From the NCBI GenBank assembly GCA_937924775.1, contig CALDUT010000009.1, positions 1-64,000 on the forward strand: 64,000 bases of DNA. The letters run 5' to 3'. The notes beneath the pieces were generated by a model. It saw only the letters and a list, made by a program, of their open reading frames with translations, searched no databases and was not told the origin of the DNA. This document shows, in pieces, positions 16,140 through 25,926 of the stretch (positions within the stretch are counted from its first letter, which is position 1; each line of letters opens with the position of its first letter). The position numbers and the translations under genes were made by a program. This DNA is from an uncultured Gemmata sp. (lineage in GTDB: Bacteria; Planctomycetota; Planctomycetia; Gemmatales; Gemmataceae).

Positions 16140-17225
16140 CTACTGCAGTTGTACGCGGACAAACCTTGGCCAGTAGAGTTCCGCGTTGTTTATGACCGGG
16201 GCCAACTCGAACGCATTAACGGCATACGAAATCACCAATTCGCGTTCACCGGCCAGTTGCGGATGGGCTTTGCCAGCGTAGGTGAACGTGGTTTTGTCGC
16301 GGCCCTCCGGACAACGATACAGCAGCACCGGCTCGCTCCACGGACCATCCGGTGTTGTGGCGAAACGGCCCACAATCCGATCCGACAAGCCGAATTCGGT
16401 ATACACCAACGCATACTGTTTCAACCCGCGGACATAGCTGACCGAAAACTCCGTCGCCAGCCCTTCGGCTTGCGCTGTGAGCTTTTGCACATTGGCTTTC
16501 CACTCCCCATCAGCGTGGAAGCGCCACGCGGTGAAATCGGTGAGTTTGTCGCGAGGTACGCGGGCGGTCAGGAGCCGACGCTGCGGGAAGAGTTTCCCCG
16601 GTGTCTCTTCGTAACCGTAAACATAGGCGTAGTCCCCAACGGTCAGCACCGCACTGCCAAAGGCGATTTTTCGCTCCGCGGTGGCCAGATCGGCAAAAGG
16701 CACCTTCGCGTAGGTGATTTTCCAGCGGCTCGGTTCCGCCATCGGGTTGCTGACAGTAGCCAACCACAGATCGACGCCGCGGAAACCAAATGCCCCGCCG
16801 GTGTCGGTCTTGGTCATCCGTGGCAAGAAAATGTACAGTTGATCGTTGGCAAAGTGCCCCGCAAACAACCAGAACCAACCCTGGCCGTCGGGGGGTGTGA
16901 ATCGGGCAACCGGCTCGTTTTTCGCGCCGTGGTGAATGTGGAAAGTGAGTTTCGCCTTGGCCCCCACGCCGTCCAGAACCGCCACGGAGTTATTCACCAA
17001 CGCGACCGGTTTCCGCTTCCCATCATGAATATGACCAACCCATGTGTCGCTGAATAGCCACACCGAGCGTGTATCGGAAAGTGGCACCGAGAATGCCCCA
17101 TCGGCCCCGATCCAACCCTCGCGGCGGCGGAACAAGGCATTGAGCCGCTCCTCCGGCTTAGCGTCAACCACACGCGGCCACTGCGGCGGAGCGGCAAAAG
17201 CTGCCAGAAGCAAAATCGTCGTCAT
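16140..17225 (-). CDS. Secreted beta-propeller protein (DUF4185/DUF5005-like)
   Basis: About 361 residues from ATG 17225. A short signal peptide (MTTILLLAAFAAPP) is followed by text typical of the five-bladed-propeller glycosidase-like secreted families: GWIGADGAFSVPLSDTRSVW then LFSDTWVG, FWLFAGHFANDQLYIFLP, GDYAYVYGYEETPGK, and SVSYVRGLKQYALVYTEFGL. These families resemble glycoside hydrolases of the GH43/68 superfamily but have no established enzyme activity. The start overlaps the stop of the methyltransferase gene by four bases (ATGA), so the two are translationally coupled. Assignment to DUF4185 or DUF5005 is by resemblance only. Confidence 0.75.
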   Translation of the reverse strand: MTTILLLAAFAAPPQWPRVVDAKPEERLNALFRRREGWIGADGAFSVPLSDTRSVWLFSDTWVGHIHDGKRKPVALVNNSVAVLDGVGAKAKLTFHIHHGAKNEPVARFTPPDGQGWFWLFAGHFANDQLYIFLPRMTKTDTGGAFGFRGVDLWLATVSNPMAEPSRWKITYAKVPFADLATAERKIAFGSAVLTVGDYAYVYGYEETPGKLFPQRRLLTARVPRDKLTDFTAWRFHADGEWKANVQKLTAQAEGLATEFSVSYVRGLKQYALVYTEFGLSDRIVGRFATTPDGPWSEPVLLYRCPEGRDKTTFTYAGKAHPQLAGERELVISYAVNAFELAPVINNAELYWPRFVRVQLQ

Positions 17226-17959
17226 TTCTTTTCTGCTTTCTTGGTGAAGAACACAACATGCTGCCACGGCAGTTCTTTGTACGTTTGGGTATGTTCCATC
17301 TCCGGGAATACGGCCATTTCCTTGAGAATTTGCCGTTCACTCATCTTGTGAACCAGTTTGATGGGCACTTTATCATCTTCCAGCCGAAACTCGACAAACA
17401 CCAAGCGGCCGCCAGGCTTGAGCGCTTCCACCAGCTTTTCCGTCATCTCGAAGGGGAACTCGAACTCGTGGTACACATCGACCATCAGAATGATATCGAT
17501 CTGACCCGCGGGCAGTTGGGGGTCGGTTGCCGTTCCGCGAACAGTCTCAATATTCGTGACTTTCTTCGCTTTCGCCTTCTTGGTGATCAAGTCGAGCATT
17601 TCTTGCTGAATGTCCGAAGCAATCACTTTCCCTTTAGCACCCACAAGCGGTGCCAGCCGGAAGGTGTGGTAACCGCTACCCGCCCCGACATCGGCCACAA
17701 TCATCCCTTCTTTGACTCCCAGCGCCGCGATCAACTTGTCGGGGGCTTCCTCATCAACGCGTTCCTGACGTTCTAACCAGCCGGCGGCCCCATAACCCAT
17801 AACGCGGGCAATTTCCCGGCCCATGTAGAACTTGCCGATACCGTTGGGGTCGTGATCGTCGCGGTATTCGTACTTCGGCCTCTCCCGCCGGGGCTTGTCG
17901 TCGGCCACCACAACTCCGCCGGCCACCAGCACCAATACCACCAAGAAACTGCGGTTCAT
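17222..17959 (-). CDS. Class I SAM-dependent methyltransferase with a signal peptide
   Basis: 245 residues. The first 20 (MNRSFLVVLVLVAGGVVVA) form a clear signal peptide, followed by a charged stretch (DDKPRRERPKYEYRDDHD) and a Rossmann methyltransferase: motif I VADVGAGSGYHTFRLAPLVG, VIASDIQQEMLD, IILMVDVYHEF, and LKPGGRLVFVEFRLED. The sequence resembles UbiE/ArsM-like methyltransferases. An exported SAM enzyme is odd because SAM is cytoplasmic; similar exported predictions exist in other bacteria, so the leader may instead anchor the enzyme. AGGAG lies upstream of ATG 17959. It is coupled to the propeller gene downstream; the substrate is unknown. Confidence 0.88.
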   Translation of the reverse strand: MNRSFLVVLVLVAGGVVVADDKPRRERPKYEYRDDHDPNGIGKFYMGREIARVMGYGAAGWLERQERVDEEAPDKLIAALGVKEGMIVADVGAGSGYHTFRLAPLVGAKGKVIASDIQQEMLDLITKKAKAKKVTNIETVRGTATDPQLPAGQIDIILMVDVYHEFEFPFEMTEKLVEALKPGGRLVFVEFRLEDDKVPIKLVHKMSERQILKEMAVFPEMEHTQTYKELPWQHVVFFTKKAEKK

Positions 17960-18241: not shown

Positions 18242-18487
18242 ATGTCGCTTTGGCTGAGCTATACCTCCTACTCGATGTATTACGATGGTTCGGAAATGAC
18301 GAACGACGAAGTGGAATTCCTCTTAGCGATCGCGTCGTATCAGAAGCGGTTCGACCGCCGCTATCCCACCTGGTTGGAAGTGCTGCACATTCTCCGCTGT
18401 TTGGGCTATCGCAAAGTGGCGGAACCTGTGGCGGTTGAACAACCCCTTCCTCCAGACCGCGCGAAACTTCGTCCGGTGCACGATTGA
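18242..18487 (+). CDS. Small protein at the head of the capsid cassette, possible winged-helix type
   Basis: 81 residues (MSLWLSYTSYSMYYDGSEMT...). The segment VEFLLAIASYQKRFDRRYPT followed by WLEVLHILRCLGYRKV has the spacing of small winged-helix DNA-binding domains such as the LexA N-terminus (inference). Its position immediately before a portal gene is where a small terminase subunit or regulator would sit, but I cannot assign it to either. ATG 18242 is chosen because the longer frame from 18089 runs through the inverted repeat and looks non-coding. Confidence 0.6.
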   Translation: MSLWLSYTSYSMYYDGSEMTNDEVEFLLAIASYQKRFDRRYPTWLEVLHILRCLGYRKVAEPVAVEQPLPPDRAKLRPVHD

Positions 18488-18500
18488 AGTCGCAGCCAGG

Positions 18501-18728
18501 ATGAGCCGGTGGTGGCCTTTCTCTGCCGCCTGCTGGCTGACAATCGCTCCCCCCTCGGTCCAACCGGTGCGGGGCATGGGGGATTGTCTGTACACCCTGT
18601 GTGTCGCTTCGAAGTGGGCCGGTCTTCGGCCAAACCGCTTTGGAATCGCTGCCCGCCGCGGTGTGTGTGTGGCCCGCGGTGCTCTTGTGGGCATGATTGA
18701 CGTTCACACTGATGATGAGGAATTGTGA
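18501..18728 (+). CDS. Doubtful small ORF overlapping the portal start
   Basis: 75 codons (MSRWWPFSAACWLTIAPP...GMIDVHTDDEEL). Its TGA at 18726-18728 shares a base with the portal ATG, a TGATG arrangement typical of translational coupling. The amino-acid text is Cys/Trp-rich and unconvincing, and another frame is also open here. The interval 18488-18727 might be a leader only. Confidence 0.25.
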   Translation: MSRWWPFSAACWLTIAPPSVQPVRGMGDCLYTLCVASKWAGLRPNRFGIAARRGVCVARGALVGMIDVHTDDEEL

Positions 18729-19966
18729 TGTCGCTTTTCACACGTTGGTTCAAAGCCCTGAAGCCGGCTCCACCAAAGGTTGCACCGCCGCGCGTGGCGA
18801 GTGTGTTCACGCCGCCATATCCTACGGCGGGTTGGTGGCGGGACGATCCCACCGAGCAACTGCGCAATTACCGGTCGTGGGTCTATGCCGCGGTCAACGC
18901 GATTGCTCAGGAAGCGGCCCGGCACAAGCCATTTTTGTACCTCAACACCGGGCAAGCGGAGCATGAGCAAATCCCCCTGCCGCATACCCACCCATTATGC
19001 CGTCTGCTCGATCGCCCCAATCCGTGGCTGACGCCGTGGGAACTGTGGTACCTGACGATTGTTTACCTCGAACTGACGGGGAATTGCTTTTGGTACATCG
19101 CGTCGCAATCGGTCGGCACGGTGCGTCTGGGCACCCCCGGCGAAATATGGATTATCCCCACCCCGTGGGTGAAGATCATTCCCGATCGCACGCAGTTCGT
19201 GAAAGCCTATGAGGTGGCCGCGCCCGGTGTGCCCGCGGAAACCTTCCCCCCCGACGAAGTGATTCACCTGAAATACCCCAACCCACTCGACCCACACTAC
19301 GGCCTTTCGCCACTGCAAGCCAATGCCATCAGTGTCGATGCCAACACCGAATTGTTGCGTTCACGTTATCAAACCTTCGTCGCGGGGCAGCGACCCGGCA
19401 TGGTTCTCTACACCGAACAAACACTCCATGACACCACAGTGACACGCCTGGAAGAGAAGATCACTGCCAAGTTTGCCGGACGTGACAATTGGCATCGACC
19501 GCTGATTCTCGAACAAGGGCTGAAAGCCAGCCCGTGGACGCTCACGCCCGCAGAGATGGATTATCTCAATTCGTCAAAGATGACGCGGGATGAAATCCTC
19601 GCGGTGTTCCGCGTGCCGCCGCCGATCACTGGCATCGTCGAGAACATGGGACTCGGAGCCGACATCTGGTTTGGGGCCCGTGTCATGTTCTGCGAAGGCA
19701 CGATTCAACCGAAACTCGATCTGATCGGACAAACGCTCACACGCGACCTGGCCAGCCGCTACGGACCCGACGTAGGCGTGTACTTCCCTGATTGCTCGCC
19801 ACGCAATCTCGACCAACGTCGCAAGGACGACGAACTCGACGCTAAACTCGGCCTACGAACCTACAACGAAATTCGCAAAAGCCGGGGACTCCAACCCTTC
19901 CCCGATCCACGCTTCGACCAACCGATCTTGCCCAAGGAATTGTCCGGCGAAGTCAGTAGTCCATAG
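18728..19966 (+). CDS. Phage portal protein, HK97 family
   Basis: 412 residues. Portal proteins form the dodecameric ring at one capsid vertex through which DNA is packaged. Family marks: SWVYAAVNAIAQEAARHKPF near the N-terminus, LLDRPNPWLTPWELWYLTIV, GNCFWYI, VIHLKYPNPLDPHYGLSPLQ, and a C-terminal MTRDEILAVFRVPPPITGIV followed by LRTYNEIRKSRGLQPF. GAGG seven bases upstream supports ATG 18728. It appears full length and unbroken, unlike a decayed prophage gene. No terminase large subunit is encoded upstream, where it normally sits. The protease and capsid genes follow in the canonical order. Confidence 0.95.
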   Translation: MSLFTRWFKALKPAPPKVAPPRVASVFTPPYPTAGWWRDDPTEQLRNYRSWVYAAVNAIAQEAARHKPFLYLNTGQAEHEQIPLPHTHPLCRLLDRPNPWLTPWELWYLTIVYLELTGNCFWYIASQSVGTVRLGTPGEIWIIPTPWVKIIPDRTQFVKAYEVAAPGVPAETFPPDEVIHLKYPNPLDPHYGLSPLQANAISVDANTELLRSRYQTFVAGQRPGMVLYTEQTLHDTTVTRLEEKITAKFAGRDNWHRPLILEQGLKASPWTLTPAEMDYLNSSKMTRDEILAVFRVPPPITGIVENMGLGADIWFGARVMFCEGTIQPKLDLIGQTLTRDLASRYGPDVGVYFPDCSPRNLDQRRKDDELDAKLGLRTYNEIRKSRGLQPFPDPRFDQPILPKELSGEVSSP

Positions 19967-19979
19967 TCATCAGTGACGC

Positions 19980-20019
19980 TTTTCGAACATATATTCACTA
20001 GTGTTCTTTTGTTCGAAAA
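19980..20019. repeat. 10-bp inverted repeat in an AT-rich spacer between portal and protease
   Basis: Arms TTTTCGAACA (19980-19989) and TGTTCGAAAA (20010-20019) with a 20-base AT-rich spacer. It may be a weak terminator of the portal transcript or an operator for an internal promoter. The spacer is far lower in GC than its flanking genes. Confidence 0.5.
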
Positions 20020-20070
20020 CATAGTTCTCGTTTGTTTCTGCTTTCTCCAACCTGAGTTCAAGGAGTTGTT

Positions 20071-20700
20071 ATGAATCCCAGTATTCGGGCGGATCCAGCG
20101 ACACGCACCCTCAATGTCGATGCGACTACAATGCGTGTCCGTAGTGTCATTACCACGATTGACCCCGACCGGGCCGGCGATGTCGTAGTGCCTACCGGGT
20201 TGCACAATTTAGAGGAATTCCTGCTCAATCCGGTGGTGTTATGGGCCCACGACCGCCTGCGGGTGCCGCCGATTGGCGTCTGCGAATGGCTCGACGTGCA
20301 ACCACGACGCATCGTCGCAGAAACTCGCTTCGCCCAAGGCGTGCCATTTGCCGAAGACCTGTTCCGACTCTACGAGCAAAACGTACTTCGCGGATGGTCG
20401 ATTGGCTTTGTACCTCGGAAGGCCAGTCGGGTGCCACGAGGCAATGGCAGTACCTCGTTACGGGTCTTCGAGTGGGATTTGCTCGAATACTCCGCCGTGC
20501 CGATTCCCGAGAATCCCGGGGCATTGACTATCGCGATTCAGAAAGGATGGATTCGCGATCGCATGCTGCGTGATTGGCTGGTGCAAGTCCCTGATGACCG
20601 CGGTCGGCAGTGGTTTCGCGCCTTTGACGTGCTGAGTGATCTTGTCGCTGTATCCTCAGAGGTACGAATCCCGATTGAGCCAGAGTTTGATTGTACTTAG
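20071..20700 (+). CDS. HK97-family prohead protease
   Basis: 209 residues. These serine-type proteases (herpesvirus assemblin fold) cleave the delta domain of the capsid protein and themselves during prohead maturation. Visible elements: SVITTIDPDRAGDVVVPTGL, LLNPVVLWAHDR containing the catalytic His of the family, and the downstream FRLYEQNVLRGWSIGFVP with the GWSIGF motif that carries the nucleophile Ser. FEWDLLEYSAVPIPENPGA is the typical second conserved block. AAGGAG five bases upstream supports ATG 20071. It appears intact, so head maturation could still work. Confidence 0.93.
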   Translation: MNPSIRADPATRTLNVDATTMRVRSVITTIDPDRAGDVVVPTGLHNLEEFLLNPVVLWAHDRLRVPPIGVCEWLDVQPRRIVAETRFAQGVPFAEDLFRLYEQNVLRGWSIGFVPRKASRVPRGNGSTSLRVFEWDLLEYSAVPIPENPGALTIAIQKGWIRDRMLRDWLVQVPDDRGRQWFRAFDVLSDLVAVSSEVRIPIEPEFDCT

Positions 20701-20883
20701 GTTTGTTATGACGCAAGTCATTTGCGCTGTTGATTAGTGTTTCAACAAAACCGTGTGGACAATAGTTTGTGCAACATCACATTCTTTTGTCAACAAGCAT
20801 GTTTTAGCTCATGATAATTTTAGTTTGATTCACTCTGTGCGAGTTTGGTTATCCATTTTTTCGATTGCGAGGTTTCTGACCCT
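20701..20883 (+). promoter_or_regulatory. AT-rich leader before the major capsid gene
   Basis: About 180 bases with a strong drop in GC compared with both flanking genes, ending at the capsid ATG. It probably holds an independent promoter for the capsid gene, which needs higher expression than portal or protease. I could not fix -35 and -10 boxes. A GAGG lies 11 bases before the ATG. Confidence 0.35.
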
Positions 20884-22266
20884 ATGTCCACAACCAACAT
20901 GACACATGACAAATTCCAATCCCGAGATGAACTGGTCAGCTTCATCGAACAGCAAGCAACGTCCGCAGTGGAGAAGGCCGCGCGTGTCGAACGGCGGGTG
21001 CCGTGGGTCACAAGTGGCCCCGTGTATGCTGATTCGTGTGGTTATAGCGTGCTGAAGGCGGCGGCGTTTGCTCTGGGCTTTGTAGGTCCGGACCAGGCCA
21101 AGGAAGAAATTCACACACATCAGCAGTTACGGGATCTGTACGCCGGCTATGGTTTCTCTCCGCATCATGGGCAGCAATCGTTTTTGGTACCATTGGCCAG
21201 TGCGCACTTACCGGTGTTTGAACCGCACGGGCAACGGTTGCGTGACGAGTTGCACCAGAAGATGACCGCCAACGCCGCGAAGTTCGATCCAGACGAAGCC
21301 GCGTGGCTGTTACGCCGTACGGGTCAATCGCCACTGCGGACCAAAGCGCTGGGCACCACGCCCGATACCGCTGGTGGCACATTCGTTCCCCTGCCGATGT
21401 TGGGGGAATTGATCGACTTGCAGCGTAGCCTCGAAGTGTTTGCAACAGCCGGGGCCCGCGAAGTTGCTTTGCCGCCCAATGGCCGCATCCAATTCCCCAA
21501 GCTGACAGCGGCCAGCACCGCCTATTGGGTGGGGGAAGGTACTGCGATTACCGAGAGCCAACCCACGACCGGGAATCTGGATTTGCAAGCCAAGAAACTC
21601 GGGGTGTTCGTGAAACTCAACAACGAGCTGCTCCGGTTCGCGTCGCCGAGTGCAGAAGGTTTGGTCCGGCTTGACATGGCCCGAGCTGCGGCTCTGAAGG
21701 CCGATTTGGCGATGCTTGAAGGCACTGGTGGCACGCAAATCAAAGGGCTGATCACTTACAGCGACATTACCACGCACACCGCGAGTGTCACCGCGGCCGA
21801 CGGCAACACCTTCACTCCAGCCGATGTTGCGTTGATGGAAAGCAAACTGCCCGACGCGGTGGAAGCACCCACCGCTTGGGTGATGCGGAAAGCGATGTTC
21901 GCCGCCCTGATGAATCGCCGTGCAGATGCTGTCAGCGCCAACGACGGCCAGGGTACGTTCCTCTTCCGCGATAATCGTGGCCTCAGTGGCCCACCGGCGG
22001 AATTCTTCGGTACGCGAGTGGTCCGCTCGGCACAAGTTTCCGCCACACGCACCAAAGGGAGCAGTTCGAACCTCACCTACATTCTGCTGGGCTACTTCCC
22101 GGATTGGATCGTGGCCCGGATGGGGGTGATGGAATTTCTCGCTAGCGGTTTGGGCGATACCGCATTGCAGAACGACATGACGTATCTACGCGGCATTCAG
22201 CACATCGACGCAGGTCCGCGGCATGCCGCAAGCTTCGTCTTTTGCGATCAACTGGTGATCGGCTAG
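20884..22266 (+). CDS. Phage major capsid protein, HK97 fold
   Basis: 460 residues from ATG 20884 (MSTTNMTHDKFQSRDELV); the in-frame start at 20845 adds a non-conserved leader. The first ~140 residues are helical and charged, fitting a delta/scaffold domain removed by the protease. The mature HK97 fold then starts around LGTTPDTAGGTFVPLPMLGE, with the conserved VALPPNGRIQFPKLTAAST, AYWVGEGTAITESQPT, KKLGVFVKLNNELLRFASP and ALKADLAMLEGTGGTQIKGL. The length is larger than encapsulins, and the partnership with portal and protease marks it as a true capsid protein. Intact frame. Confidence 0.96.
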   Translation: MSTTNMTHDKFQSRDELVSFIEQQATSAVEKAARVERRVPWVTSGPVYADSCGYSVLKAAAFALGFVGPDQAKEEIHTHQQLRDLYAGYGFSPHHGQQSFLVPLASAHLPVFEPHGQRLRDELHQKMTANAAKFDPDEAAWLLRRTGQSPLRTKALGTTPDTAGGTFVPLPMLGELIDLQRSLEVFATAGAREVALPPNGRIQFPKLTAASTAYWVGEGTAITESQPTTGNLDLQAKKLGVFVKLNNELLRFASPSAEGLVRLDMARAAALKADLAMLEGTGGTQIKGLITYSDITTHTASVTAADGNTFTPADVALMESKLPDAVEAPTAWVMRKAMFAALMNRRADAVSANDGQGTFLFRDNRGLSGPPAEFFGTRVVRSAQVSATRTKGSSSNLTYILLGYFPDWIVARMGVMEFLASGLGDTALQNDMTYLRGIQHIDAGPRHAASFVFCDQLVIG

Positions 22267-22320
22267 GCAATCGCGTGCGGCTTTCTCGTTTTGCGTGAAT
22301 TCTTTGGGAGAACTCTATCG

Positions 22321-22695
22321 ATGGCCACTCACATCAACGATTTTGCTTCTGCTGTTGCTGTACATACGGCGGTACCTCCCTCGCCACGGATCAACCCCTT
22401 CAGCAGCAATGCGATTGATCTGATTTCGTCCGACGGCGATTGCTTCGCGATTCAGCAGGTCGGGTCGTTTGAAGAAGGCAACAGTTGGACGGGGCGGATT
22501 GAACAATCGACCGATGGCAGTTCGTGGTCGGAAATTCCCGGCGCGGTGTTCACCGCGGTGACGGCAGCGAACAACACGCAGGTGCTTCGTTTCCGACGAA
22601 CGGCTCGGTATGTGCGTTACTCCGCGACGGTGGAAGGCTCCAGTAACGAATTGATTCTCGCGGTGCTGATTGGTCAGCAACGCAAGAGCTTCTGA
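22321..22695 (+). CDS. Small beta-rich protein of the head cassette
   Basis: 124 residues from ATG 22321 (GGGAG nearby upstream). The pattern WTGRIEQSTDGSSWSEIPGA, FTAVTAANNTQVLRFRRTAR and YVRYSATVEGSSNELILAVL is that of beta-sandwich proteins encoded next to capsid genes in several siphophages, where small decoration or head-associated proteins sit (inference). A strong hairpin follows directly. Confidence 0.7.
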   Translation: MATHINDFASAVAVHTAVPPSPRINPFSSNAIDLISSDGDCFAIQQVGSFEEGNSWTGRIEQSTDGSSWSEIPGAVFTAVTAANNTQVLRFRRTARYVRYSATVEGSSNELILAVLIGQQRKSF

Positions 22696-22704
22696 ACATT
22701 CTCC

Positions 22705-22727
22705 AACCCCGCCACGGTGGCGGGGTT
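22705..22727 (+). terminator. Strong hairpin between the beta-rich protein and connector genes
   Basis: Arms AACCCCGCCA (22705-22714) and TGGCGGGGTT (22718-22727) with a CGG loop, followed by GTTCC. The stem is very stable but the T-tract is weak, so it may act as a partial terminator or attenuator, or as an mRNA-stabilising 3' structure for the capsid transcript. Confidence 0.6.
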
Positions 22728-22750
22728 GTTCCGCCTTGGGAGTACCCCCG

Positions 22751-23359
22751 ATGATCGATACGCTTGCGAACGTCAAAACGGCTCTCCAGATTTCCACGTC
22801 GGCAGACGACCTGCTACTCACTCGGCTGATGGCCGGGGCTGATGGCTTCATCACGCAGCATACCGGCCGCATTTTCACCGGTGGCACATTCACCGAAATT
22901 CACCCCGCGGCGCGAACGATGATCTTTTTGCGCAACTATCCGGTGGTGAGTGTGGCCAGTGTGAAGGTGGACCCAGCGCGCCAATTCGGCTCGGGAAGCG
23001 AGCGTGATCCGGATACCTACGTTCTGCATGCCGACCGTGGGTTGATTGAATCGCTTCTAGGTCCATTCTTGCCACCGCGTGGCGGTCGCCGCGACGATTG
23101 GCCCGGGGCATTGCAAGTGGTTTACACCACCGCTAGCAACGCCGTCCCCCCGGTGATCCAGGAAGCCTTCGCGCAACTGATTAGTCACTGGTACCGGCAG
23201 ATCAAAACTTTTGCTGATCAGGAGTATGAAATGCTGGTGGAACGCTGGGTAGAAACGGATGCGAAGATGTGGCCGTGGGGGCTTGCGAATGGGTTGAAAA
23301 TTCCGCTGGGGGTTCTCGACTTGCTCGCGACCTATCGCACACCGCCGACCGGATGGTGA
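22751..23359 (+). CDS. Phage head-tail connector (gp6/Phage_connect_1-like)
   Basis: About 202 residues from ATG 22751 (MIDTLANVKTALQIS). The N-terminal DDLLLTRLMAGADGFITQHT and the preceding helix match the first helices of head-tail connector proteins that dock on the portal ring. The C-terminal half (VPPVIQEAFAQLISHWYRQI) also fits. It is the last recognisable head gene. The expected next genes (head closure, tail terminator, tail tube, tape measure) are absent and bacterial genes resume. Confidence 0.85.
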   Translation: MIDTLANVKTALQISTSADDLLLTRLMAGADGFITQHTGRIFTGGTFTEIHPAARTMIFLRNYPVVSVASVKVDPARQFGSGSERDPDTYVLHADRGLIESLLGPFLPPRGGRRDDWPGALQVVYTTASNAVPPVIQEAFAQLISHWYRQIKTFADQEYEMLVERWVETDAKMWPWGLANGLKIPLGVLDLLATYRTPPTGW

Positions 23360-23449
23360 CGTACATTCGTCGCGGGGCTAGCCACGGGTTGCTTCGGGTA
23401 TAAAAAATAAATACTGGATTCGGTCGCCCGCGGTGTGGGAAGGGATGAA

Positions 23450-23935
23450 ATGCGTTGGCGAGGGCGTTTTTCACGGCGTTGGCTTCGCCAGGGGTTGGTG
23501 GCCGTCGTGGTTTTCGCCCAACTGATCGCCGCTACCGGCGCACCATTACCCACGCCACCGCGTGACGCGGCTCCAGCGACCGCCACTTCCCGTTCTCCAG
23601 CACCTCAAGCTCCCTTGTGTAGCGGGGGCAGTTCGTGTTGCTGTGCCACTTCCGGCGGTATTACTTGCGGTTGCTGTTGCTCGGTGAAAATCCATCGCGT
23701 GTCTGTCGAGATGAATAGCCACGACGGTGAGTTCCGCTGGGTGGGTGGCCTTCTTATGGCGAAGTGCCGCGGTGATGGACCGGGGGGGCTGTTGAAGGCG
23801 GAACTCGTCGCGGTGCTGCCGCCGGCGCCAGCAGTACCGAAAGCCCCACAGCCGCCGCGCTTCGTGTTCCCAACGGATTGGCAGGCCATGTCGTCGGTCC
23901 ATCGTCCGCCTACGCCGCCGCCCCGATTGTCCTGA
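23450..23935 (+). CDS. Secreted Cys-rich protein of unknown function
   Basis: 161 residues from ATG 23450 (GGAAGGG five bases upstream). A basic start and hydrophobic segment (RQGLVAVVVFAQLIAATGAP) form a signal peptide. A cysteine-dense region follows: CSGGSSCCCATSGGITCGCC plus another Cys, in which CCC clusters could bind metal or be disulfide-bonded. The C-terminal 60 residues are Pro-rich. No homology is recognised. It sits between the head cassette and the DUF1559 gene, with no obvious functional link to either. Confidence 0.65.
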   Translation: MRWRGRFSRRWLRQGLVAVVVFAQLIAATGAPLPTPPRDAAPATATSRSPAPQAPLCSGGSSCCCATSGGITCGCCCSVKIHRVSVEMNSHDGEFRWVGGLLMAKCRGDGPGGLLKAELVAVLPPAPAVPKAPQPPRFVFPTDWQAMSSVHRPPTPPPRLS

Positions 23936-24007
23936 GTTGTTCGGTTGTTGGTGTTGTGAGTCGGTTCGTGCGACCGCGCGTCGTGTTACGCGCTGATCGA
24001 GAGACCG

Positions 24008-25126
24008 ATGCGCACAAAACATTCCTTACTTCTCAGGGCTTACATCATGCTTCACTCCAAACGATGGGCGTTTACGCTGATTGAACTGCTCGTGGTGATT
24101 GCGATCATCGCGATTTTGATTGGTTTGCTGTTACCGGCGGTGCAAAAGGTGCGCGAAGCCGCGGCCCGCATGAGCTGTCAGAATAACCTCAAGCAACTCG
24201 GCCTGGCCATGCATAACTTCGAATCGGCCAACGGTGTATTGCCGAACTTTGAACTGACCCCGGGGGTGAATCAGATTTCTGGTAACTACTCGGTTCACGC
24301 GCGCTTGTTGCCGTTTGTGGAACAAGACAACCTGCAGCGGTTAATCGACTTCACCATCCCGATTCGAACCGGTTCTGGCGGTGCGTCGACGCTCAACCCA
24401 GTTGTCCGACCAGCCGCGCAAACCTTGGTGAAATTGTTCCTCTGCCCCAGTGATGGGCAAGACCCGGTTGTGGATTACGTCGAAGGTAATACGACGAATC
24501 GCTACGCGGGCACCAACTATGCGGTCAATCTCGCCTCGGGAGCCGGAGTCACTTACGACACCCGCGTTCCCACCGATGGCCTGTTCTGGATCAATTCGCG
24601 TGTCCGGTGGATGGACATTACCGACGGCACGAGTAACACGGTGTTGATGTCGGAATGGCTGCGCGGTAACAACATCACCACCCCCGGTACAACGCCGATC
24701 GATCCGCGGCGGCAAATGGGGGATTGTATCTGTTTTTGGGCCCATCAGGCGTTTCCCCCGAATCCGCCGGGGATTCGCAACGGGCCGCAAGGGCCAATTA
24801 TCAGCGATCCCAACCCGGCGACGTTTCTAACCGAATTGCAAAACGGGGGCGGTTTCCGCGGACGGTTTGTGGGTTCGCGCGGGCTGCGATGGATCAACGG
24901 CCGCGAATTCGACACCGGCTACACCGCCTGGCAAACGCCCAACAGCCGGCTACCGGATTGGTTCAGTTGTGGGTTCGGCTGGATGTCGGCCAGCAGCAAC
25001 CATGCCGGCGGTGTCAACGCCCTATGGTGCGATGGCTCGGTTCGGTTTGTGCGGGATAGCGTGACTTTGCCGGTATGGCGAGCCGCCCATACGCGAGCCG
25101 GGGGAGAAATTCCGGGCGATTTGTAA
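24008..25126 (+). CDS. DUF1559 domain protein with prepilin-type N-terminus
   Basis: 372 residues. Gene family massively expanded in planctomycetes. The type IV pilin-like N-terminus is clear: [20 protein letters not shown] with the prepilin peptidase site before FTLIE. The DUF1559 globular region follows ([40 protein letters not shown]) and the C-terminal H-X9-DG motif [12 protein letters not shown]. The product is presumably assembled by or secreted through a type II/IV pilus-like machinery and exposed at the cell surface. ATG 24008 has a weak GAGAG upstream; 24047 is an alternative giving a shorter leader. Confidence 0.93.
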
Positions 25127-25311: not shown

Positions 25312-25926
25312 GTGACCCGTGACGCCGTACCCGACTGGCCACCCGGCTCCCCCGACGAGGAAGCCGAAACGATCCGTGCCGCACAACGCGGTAATCGGGC
25401 GGCCTTTGCACAACTGGTGGAACGCTACTGGGATCGGCTGTACCGCTGGCTCTACCACCTGACCCGCAACCGCCACGCCGCGGAAGATCTCACCCAAGAG
25501 ACCTTCCTGCGGGCGCTGGCCGCGATTCATACCTTCCGACCCGGGAGCAACTTCCGCGCGTGGGTGTTCCGCATCGGCCACAATAACTTCGTGAATCAAA
25601 AACGAGCCGAACGACGGACCAAACACCAACTGCCTGAGGATGACGTCGTCCCGACGACGACCACCACCGAGCAGGATACCGAGACTCGCGAAGTGCTGGA
25701 AGTGGTCCAAAAGGCCGTTGCGGAACTGCCCGCCGACTTCCGCATCGCCCTGCAACTGCGGGTGGGCGAAGAACTCTCGTTCCGCGAAGTGGCACAGATT
25801 CTCGGCATCACCGAAGAGACGGCTCGCTGGCGTGTATTCAAAGCCCGCCAGAAATTGATGAAAATCCTGGCACCCGAAATGCTCCCGCCGGGGGCCGTTT
25901 CGAGCGAGAGCGAACCGGAAACGTAA
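25312..25926 (+). CDS. ECF-type RNA polymerase sigma factor
   Basis: 204 residues starting at GTG 25312. Region 2 is AAFAQLVERYWDRLYRWLYH with LTRNRHAAEDLTQETFLRAL and FRAWVFRIGHNNFVNQKR, which binds the -10 element and core polymerase. Region 4 is ELPADFRIALQLRVGEELSF followed by REVAQILGITEETARWRVFK, an HTH. A polar linker rich in Thr/Asp/Glu joins them. The gene is followed 47 bases later by a zinc-finger anti-sigma gene, the usual partner arrangement. The signal sensed is unknown. Confidence 0.95.
   Translation: MTRDAVPDWPPGSPDEEAETIRAAQRGNRAAFAQLVERYWDRLYRWLYHLTRNRHAAEDLTQETFLRALAAIHTFRPGSNFRAWVFRIGHNNFVNQKRAERRTKHQLPEDDVVPTTTTTEQDTETREVLEVVQKAVAELPADFRIALQLRVGEELSFREVAQILGITEETARWRVFKARQKLMKILAPEMLPPGAVSSESEPET

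What the first reader, a model, noticed from the sequence alone, without database searches (positions are those of the whole stretch)
18242..23359. Minimal HK97-type head cassette with no terminase, tail, lysis or integrase
Portal, prohead protease, major capsid protein, a small beta-rich protein and a head-tail connector are intact and in canonical order, flanked directly by ordinary bacterial genes. Decayed prophages normally show broken frames; here every head gene is open. This could be a domesticated capsid, a gene-transfer-agent-like particle, or a satellite that borrows terminase and tails. Seen: gene order, intact motifs, missing partners. Known: HK97 head modules need terminase to package. 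Inference: domestication.
Basis: partly seen in the sequence, partly recalled or inferred. Interest (0 to 1): 0.78.

Follow-up and report, generated by a model that had tools for sequence, protein, structure and literature searches.

The report
Inherited virus-head genes without motor
A family of freshwater and soil bacteria has inherited, through its own family tree, a working-looking set of five virus-shell genes but no DNA-packing motor that we could find and no tail, so these bacteria probably make a virus-derived particle for a purpose of their own that nobody has described.

Summary
Five intact head genes lie at 18725-23359: portal, S78 protease, HK97-type major capsid protein (MCP), a jelly-roll protein and a phrog_442 connector. 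No phage genes flank them. The 18242 ORF is not part of the set: cassette-free relatives keep it in place.

The cassette is a family trait. 35 of 95 Gemmataceae genomes carry it (portal 66-92% identical). In the home genus, and partly in other genera, it sits between a methyltransferase gene and a sigma-factor gene. All 32 carriers on an rpoB tree fall in one 45-genome clade. The cassette tree matches the rpoB tree (19 of 24 splits), and dN/dS is about 0.02-0.15 for portal, protease and MCP. Four cassette-free genus members have a clean empty site. This indicates one old acquisition, vertical descent under purifying selection, and repeated loss.

The own genome has one portal, no tape-measure match and no terminase by four models. 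A satellite, decayed prophage or self-sufficient gene transfer agent is therefore unlikely. The best reading is a domesticated, tail-less head particle. That it works without packaging DNA is inference.

Two unasked findings: basal Gemmataceae carry a different tail-less head cassette, usually with terminase, never together with this one; and serine-integrase prophages repeatedly interrupt the cassette's protease and capsid genes.

The parts
18728..19966 (+). portal protein (412 aa; alternative start GTG 18725)
   Evidence: PF04860 4e-52, phrog_2662 3e-61; 33 full orthologues at 66-92% identity in Gemmataceae; 123 of 413 positions invariant in 44 sequences
20071..20700 (+). prohead (S78) protease, 209 aa
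   Evidence: PF04586, phrog_80 9e-17; motifs NPVVLWAH, GWSIGF and EWDLLEYSAVP with invariant H, S and D/E in 42 sequences
20884..22266 (+). HK97-type major capsid protein, 460 aa, with a conserved N-terminal region of about 150 aa before the shell domain
   Evidence: PF05065 5e-34, phrog_10 2.5e-39; profile match to solved capsid chain 8gta_A E=7e-11; no premature stop in 41 homologues, 154 invariant positions
22321..22695 (+). small beta protein, predicted jelly roll; probable capsid decoration or cement protein
   Evidence: phrog_5707; AlphaFold2 mean pLDDT 85; best viral fold match V5YTA7 of Pseudomonas phage PPpW-3 E=2.5e-9, TM 0.8; weaker match 3j4u_H, a jelly-roll capsid component of a Bordetella phage; homologue directly after the MCP in planctomycete phages
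22751..23359 (+). head-tail connector/adaptor (phrog_442), 202 aa
   Evidence: PF05135 4.5e-6, phrog_442 5e-21
18242..18487 (+). 81-aa host gene (orfA), directly upstream; not part of the head cassette
   Evidence: retained at the same place in cassette-free G002, G008, G010, G013, G017; no Pfam or PHROG match
17222..17959 (-). upstream flank: methyltransferase gene
   Evidence: PF13847; same neighbour in most same-genus carriers and in G025, G057, G069, G076, G086
23435..25126 (+). downstream flank: 166-aa protein and DUF1559 protein, host genes
   Evidence: PF07596; also present at the empty sites
25312..25926 (+). downstream flank: sigma-factor gene that marks the locus
   Evidence: adjacent to the connector end of the cassette in other genera too (G037, G025, G057, G049, G077) and present at the empty sites

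Best explanation
This is a domesticated phage head module that was acquired once in an ancestor of crown Gemmataceae and has since been inherited with the chromosome under purifying selection. It most likely builds a tail-less HK97-type particle: MCP precursors assemble with the portal and the protease inside, the protease trims the precursors and matures the shell, the jelly-roll protein decorates it, and the connector closes the portal. With no matching terminase found, the particle is most likely not filled by a phage motor and serves the host as a proteinaceous compartment or released particle of unknown cargo. Shown: gene content, order, intact frames and catalytic motifs, single origin, vertical descent, purifying selection, and no terminase match with four models. 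Inferred: that a particle forms, that it holds no motor-packaged DNA, and its use.
For: Orthologues in 35 of 95 Gemmataceae genomes; the next portals are only about 30% identical. The five genes keep their order in the carriers and viral-labelled contigs that span them, although the beta gene was not recognised in several genera. All 32 carriers fall in one 45-genome rpoB clade, support 99. Cassette and rpoB trees share 19 of 24 splits, against at most 3 in shuffles, with no strongly supported cassette-side conflict; distances correlate, r=0.91. Pairwise dN/dS 0.02-0.05 for MCP and 0.04-0.15 for portal and protease. Protease catalytic motif positions invariant; the few stops seen are natural C-terminal ends. 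No terminase in the own genome by PF03354, PF03237, PF05876; the one weak phrog_2 hit is RecD2. One portal only, no tape-measure match.
Against: No expression, particle or knock-out data. MCP structure prediction failed (mean pLDDT 34), so assembly competence rests on sequence. Portal and connector are best known as DNA-path parts; their conservation could point to DNA passage. A terminase of a type that the profiles miss could exist: the phrog_15/38-type terminase of a prophage in G015 was missed by all three Pfam scans. Several lineages lost the cassette, so it is dispensable.
Confidence: 0.6

Rival explanations
1. A gene transfer agent in reduced form: the cassette makes heads that are filled with host DNA by a terminase or other motor encoded elsewhere and released without a tail or with unrecognised tail genes.
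For: Portal and connector, the DNA path, are conserved. Alphaproteobacterial GTAs are likewise vertically inherited phage head modules (PMC7947584, PMC10883770). Basal Gemmataceae carry a different head cassette that does include terminase genes.
Against: No terminase by four models in the own genome; none by three Pfam models in single-contig G019 and most other carriers searched; no tape-measure match in the own genome. The nearest phage relative has a phrog_2-type terminase, a type the phrog_2 scan would be expected to find.
Confidence: 0.2
2. An anti-phage device: cassette MCP, portal or protease co-assemble with or process the proteins of infecting related phages and poison their assembly, as endogenous retroviral Gag proteins do in mammals.
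For: Phages with 44-53% identical MCP exist. Serine-integrase prophages interrupt the protease or MCP gene in several lineages. Crown-clade carriers appear to hold fewer other portals than non-carriers, but this is confounded with genome size and assembly quality.
Against: The portals of those phages are only 23-28% identical, so mixed portals are unlikely. Insertion into conserved coding motifs is ordinary for large serine integrases. No direct test was possible.
Confidence: 0.15
3. A decaying prophage or a satellite that borrows terminase and tail from helper phages.
For: All genes are phage-derived. Limnoglobus roseus (G067) has a clearly decaying copy.
Against: Open frames and low dN/dS across many species, a fixed locus shared within the genus, congruence with rpoB, and no integrase, replication or regulatory genes.
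Confidence: 0.04

Closest known systems
Encapsulins (HK97-fold nanocompartments)
   Same: HK97-fold shell proteins of probable viral origin, vertically kept in bacteria, no terminase or tail (PMC8987985, PMC8346489)
   Different: Encapsulins are standalone shell genes with cargo enzymes. Here the shell gene is a Phage_capsid-family MCP with a long N-terminal region and retains portal, protease, decoration and connector genes; the encapsulin profile match is not significant (E=0.065)
Gene transfer agents (RcGTA-like)
   Same: Domesticated phage head genes, vertically inherited under purifying selection
   Different: GTAs have terminase and tail genes and package host DNA (PMC7947584, PMC8987985); neither was found here
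Capsid-encoding phage satellites (cf-PICI type; from memory)
   Same: A small set of phage head genes without a tail
   Different: Satellites are mobile and carry packaging genes; this cassette sits at a fixed locus, follows the host tree and has no mobility or packaging gene
Bt075 of the Bacillus thuringiensis israelensis parasporal body (PMC10669011)
   Same: A bacterial structure that uses a protein derived from an HK97-like major capsid protein without virion formation
   Different: Single plasmid gene; no portal, protease or connector reported in that abstract
Head module of planctomycete prophages and phages (L152, L233, L235, L239)
   Same: Same core order portal-protease-MCP, in part with beta and connector genes, homologous proteins (MCP 41-53%)
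   Different: These generally carry terminase, and L152 also has a MuF-like minor head gene and further genes that the cassette lacks

Membership tests
Domesticated phage element (viriform-like) | vertical inheritance with the host at a stable locus | tested here: met
   synteny within the genus, single clade, tree congruence 19 of 24 splits
Domesticated phage element (viriform-like) | purifying selection on structural genes | tested here: met
   pairwise dN/dS 0.02-0.15 for portal, protease and MCP
Domesticated phage element (viriform-like) | a demonstrated function for the host | not testable with these tools
   no expression or phenotype data
Gene transfer agent | large terminase for packaging host DNA | tested here: not met
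   PF03354, PF03237, PF05876 negative in the own genome and in G019; phrog_2 hits in these two are RecD2 and PhoH. Caveat: a phrog_15/38-type terminase can escape these scans
Gene transfer agent | tail or injection apparatus | tested here: not met
   no tail gene in or next to the cassette; tape-measure PF10145 absent in the own genome; other tail families not scanned genome-wide
Gene transfer agent | particles with DNase-protected host DNA | not testable with these tools
   needs wet laboratory
Encapsulin | encapsulin-family shell protein | tested here: not met
   PF04454 E=0.065, below cut-off; PF05065 5e-34 instead
Encapsulin | dedicated cargo enzyme beside the shell gene | tested here: not met
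   the flanking genes stay in place without the cassette; none is specific to the cassette
Phage satellite (PICI type) | mobility: integrase, variable location, distribution unlike the host tree | tested here: not met
   no integrase; fixed locus in the genus; host-congruent tree
Intact or decayed prophage | a larger phage module around it, or broken frames | tested here: not met
   host genes directly on both sides; frames open

The most novel reading that the evidence does not exclude
Gemmataceae maintain one head-like particle per lineage as a normal cell component. Crown lineages use a portal-bearing HK97 shell whose terminase has been discarded, so the particle is loaded by a new, non-phage route or with a non-DNA cargo, while basal lineages use a second, independently acquired cassette that mostly still has its terminase. 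The two never occur together because they do the same job.
Probability: 0.3. Interest if true: 0.9.

Novelty: new variant of a known kind. Interest (0 to 1): 0.76.

Why it matters
Known domesticated capsids are either bare shells (encapsulins) or complete DNA-injecting particles (gene transfer agents). A vertically inherited head with portal, protease and connector but no detectable packaging motor and no tail lies between the two. It offers a defined set of five genes, in named isolates and MAGs, in which to ask what a portal-bearing capsid is good for without a phage, and how encapsulin-like shells could arise. In practice, such cassettes are now counted as viruses: the 11 IMG/VR 'viral' contigs found by the portal search are this cassette, one of them with a prophage inserted in it.

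Tried and rejected
(1) MCP structure prediction with 22 close homologues failed (pLDDT 34), so no fold claim is made for it. (2) IQ-TREE codon-model omega could not be read from the output; pairwise Nei-Gojobori values were used. IQ-TREE gene trees failed or timed out; FastTree was used, so no AU test. (3) A first rpoB tree was spoilt by antisense reading frames in some high-GC genomes and was replaced. (4) Weak phrog_2 'terminase' hits in G000 and G019 turned out to be RecD2 and PhoH. (5) The apparent 'stops' in some portals and proteases lie in the last residues of the alignment and are natural ends. (6) orfA was considered as a small terminase or regulator of the cassette and rejected, because it persists without the cassette. 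(7) The dN/dS value for the MCP of the second cassette type (1.9) contradicts 92% protein identity and is treated as an alignment artefact. (9) Seven literature searches found no description of such a cassette; open-licence papers only.

Full report
OBSERVATION. The window is the start of contig C9 (195.7 kb) of a 4.79-Mb genome, 97% complete. At 18725-23359 five genes follow one another: portal, S78 prohead protease, HK97-type MCP, a small beta protein and a phrog_442 connector, each with profile support. G+C (57%) and third-position G+C (60-68%) are close to those of neighbouring host genes, so the cassette is ameliorated. The flanking genes are host genes on both sides, and there is no tRNA in the window.

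DISTRIBUTION. A search of 149 relatives with the portal found 33 full orthologues at 66-92% identity (the window's own included), one internally deleted copy, and then a sharp drop to about 30%. The MCP search over all 95 family genomes gave the same set plus one more carrier, 35 in all. Of 392 genomes spread over the phylum only one other had a good MCP match, at 38%. Named records include Gemmata, Fimbriiglobus, Limnoglobus and Gemmataceae bacterium CJuql4. Several of the records are MAGs with doubtful labels (one is called Bacteroidales), so the names are indicative.

LOCUS. In the home genus the order is methyltransferase (opposite strand), orfA, cassette, then in most members the sigma-factor gene and its neighbours; in other genera orfA and/or the sigma-factor gene are often still adjacent. 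Four cassette-free genus members (G002, G008, G010, G013) have the same flanking genes with orfA and nothing of the cassette between orfA and the downstream genes. These lie inside the carrier clade on the rpoB tree, so this is loss, and it shows that orfA is not part of the cassette. G049 and G019 carry the cassette away from their closest methyltransferase homologue, so the chromosome was rearranged there.

HISTORY. On a 70-genome rpoB tree all 32 carriers fall in one 45-genome clade with support 99; presence needs 11 changes, against 23 for shuffled labels. One gain and about ten losses is the simplest reading; some 'losses' may be incomplete MAGs. The cassette tree (portal+protease+MCP, 27 genomes) shares 19 of 24 splits with the rpoB tree (at most 3 in shuffles) and has no strongly supported split against it. 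Pairwise distances correlate at r=0.91. Pairwise dN/dS is 0.02-0.05 for MCP, 0.04-0.15 for portal and protease, 0.04-0.26 for connector and 0.07-0.26 for the beta protein, with one pair at 0.70. Apart from interrupted or decaying copies (G067, G049, G015, G016 and one viral contig), the aligned genes have no premature stops.

WHAT IS MISSING. No terminase was found in the own genome with PF03354, PF03237 or PF05876. The phrog_2 profile gives one weak match, which is RecD2. Most other carriers, single-contig G019 among them, are also negative with the three Pfam models; some carriers have terminases that belong to ordinary prophages. One limit is known: the terminase of the prophage in G015 (phrog_15/38 type) escaped all three Pfam scans. 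The nearest phage relative read in full (a G026 prophage, L152) has a phrog_979/phrog_2-type terminase directly before the portal, then portal, a MuF-like minor head gene, protease, MCP, beta protein and connector. The type that the cassette would be expected to need is thus the type that was looked for. The tape-measure profile PF10145 is also negative in the own genome; other tail families were not scanned genome-wide.

THE PARTS. The protease keeps its His, Ser and acidic motif positions in 42 sequences; portal and MCP have 123 and 154 invariant positions. The beta protein is predicted as a beta sandwich (pLDDT 85). Its best viral fold match is a small protein of phage PPpW-3, in whose genome small genes of that size follow the MCP gene, and a jelly-roll component of a Bordetella phage capsid is among the PDB matches at moderate TM-score (0.52). 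A decoration role is likely but not shown.

MECHANISM. What the sequence supports is a complete recipe for a head: shell, portal, maturation protease, decoration and portal closure. What it does not support is filling by a phage motor or injection by a tail. The most likely product is therefore a tail-less, protease-matured particle with a portal vertex and no motor-packaged DNA. Its cargo and use are unknown. The strongest counter-argument is the conservation of portal and connector, which in phages form the DNA path.

A SECOND CASSETTE. Many basal Gemmataceae that lack this cassette hold one other portal. Those read here belong to a second, compact cassette: terminase, portal, protease, MCP, connector, a ParB-like gene and, where read (for example G045, G046, G026), an ATPase-like gene and a small-terminase-like gene, with no tail or integrase recognised in the genes scanned, flanked by host-type genes (partly by eye). 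A portal search over 95 genomes finds it at 43-100% identity in about 31 genomes and in none of the 35 carriers of the first cassette (0 of 35 against about 31 of 60, Fisher p about 1e-8, not corrected for ancestry). G026, which lies in the crown clade but lacks the first cassette, has the second. In G041, G044 and G047 the second cassette has no terminase beside the portal either. The two portal groups are separate clades with phages between them, though the deep branching is weakly resolved, so independent acquisition is likely. Vertical descent of the second type is only partly supported (5 of 10 splits shared with rpoB once a two-copy genome is left out, with two supported conflicts). It may be a gene-transfer-agent-like element; this needs its own study.

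INTERRUPTIONS. Elements with large serine integrases (phrog_95) sit inside the MCP gene at codons of about 253-260 in G049 and in an IMG/VR contig that shows both halves, and at the catalytic-His motif of the protease gene in G015; the MCP gene of Limnoglobus roseus is also split next to an integrase fragment. These lineages have lost or suspended the cassette.

VERDICT. A real, conserved, domesticated head cassette: new as an assembly of parts, related to known kinds of capsid domestication. The family-level facts are well supported; the function is open.

Noticed in passing
L316-L335 (reference L319:1338-12587); genomes such as G081, G072, G045, G046, G026: A second, probably independently acquired tail-less head cassette in basal Gemmataceae (terminase, portal, protease, MCP, connector, ParB-like, with ATPase-like and small-terminase-like genes where read), in about 31 of 95 genomes and never together with the window's cassette.
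   Followed up: partly
L050:8777-10474 with L143, L234/L236, L064, L062, L049/L144: Cassette genes are repeatedly interrupted by elements with large serine integrases: MCP codons of about 253-260 in several lineages, and the catalytic-His motif of the protease gene in G015.
   Followed up: partly
L062 and L150-L151 (G067, Limnoglobus roseus); L051 and L146 (G055): The MCP gene is also broken at codons of about 416-423 in both genomes; in Limnoglobus the pieces lie about 90 kb apart and the portal has an internal deletion.
   Followed up: no
L317, L321, L331 (G041, G044, G047): In these genomes the second cassette type also lacks a terminase beside the portal, a possible parallel loss; the rest of these genomes was not searched for terminase.
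   Followed up: no
crown Gemmataceae genomes: Carriers seem to hold fewer other phage portals than cassette-free crown relatives, but the latter are larger and better assembled genomes; the cause is open.
   Followed up: no
L145 (G079:C316): A second, more diverged set of protease (partial), MCP, beta and connector genes beside a sigma-factor gene in the same MAG; a duplicate or a contaminating contig.
   Followed up: no
L032-L042, L227-L231: IMG/VR lists many contigs of this host cassette as viral; several carry the flanking host genes (L037, L042, L230).
   Followed up: partly
L314 (G513): A more distant planctomycete carries a 38% MCP with a 27% portal nearby; prophage or another cassette was not decided.
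   Followed up: no
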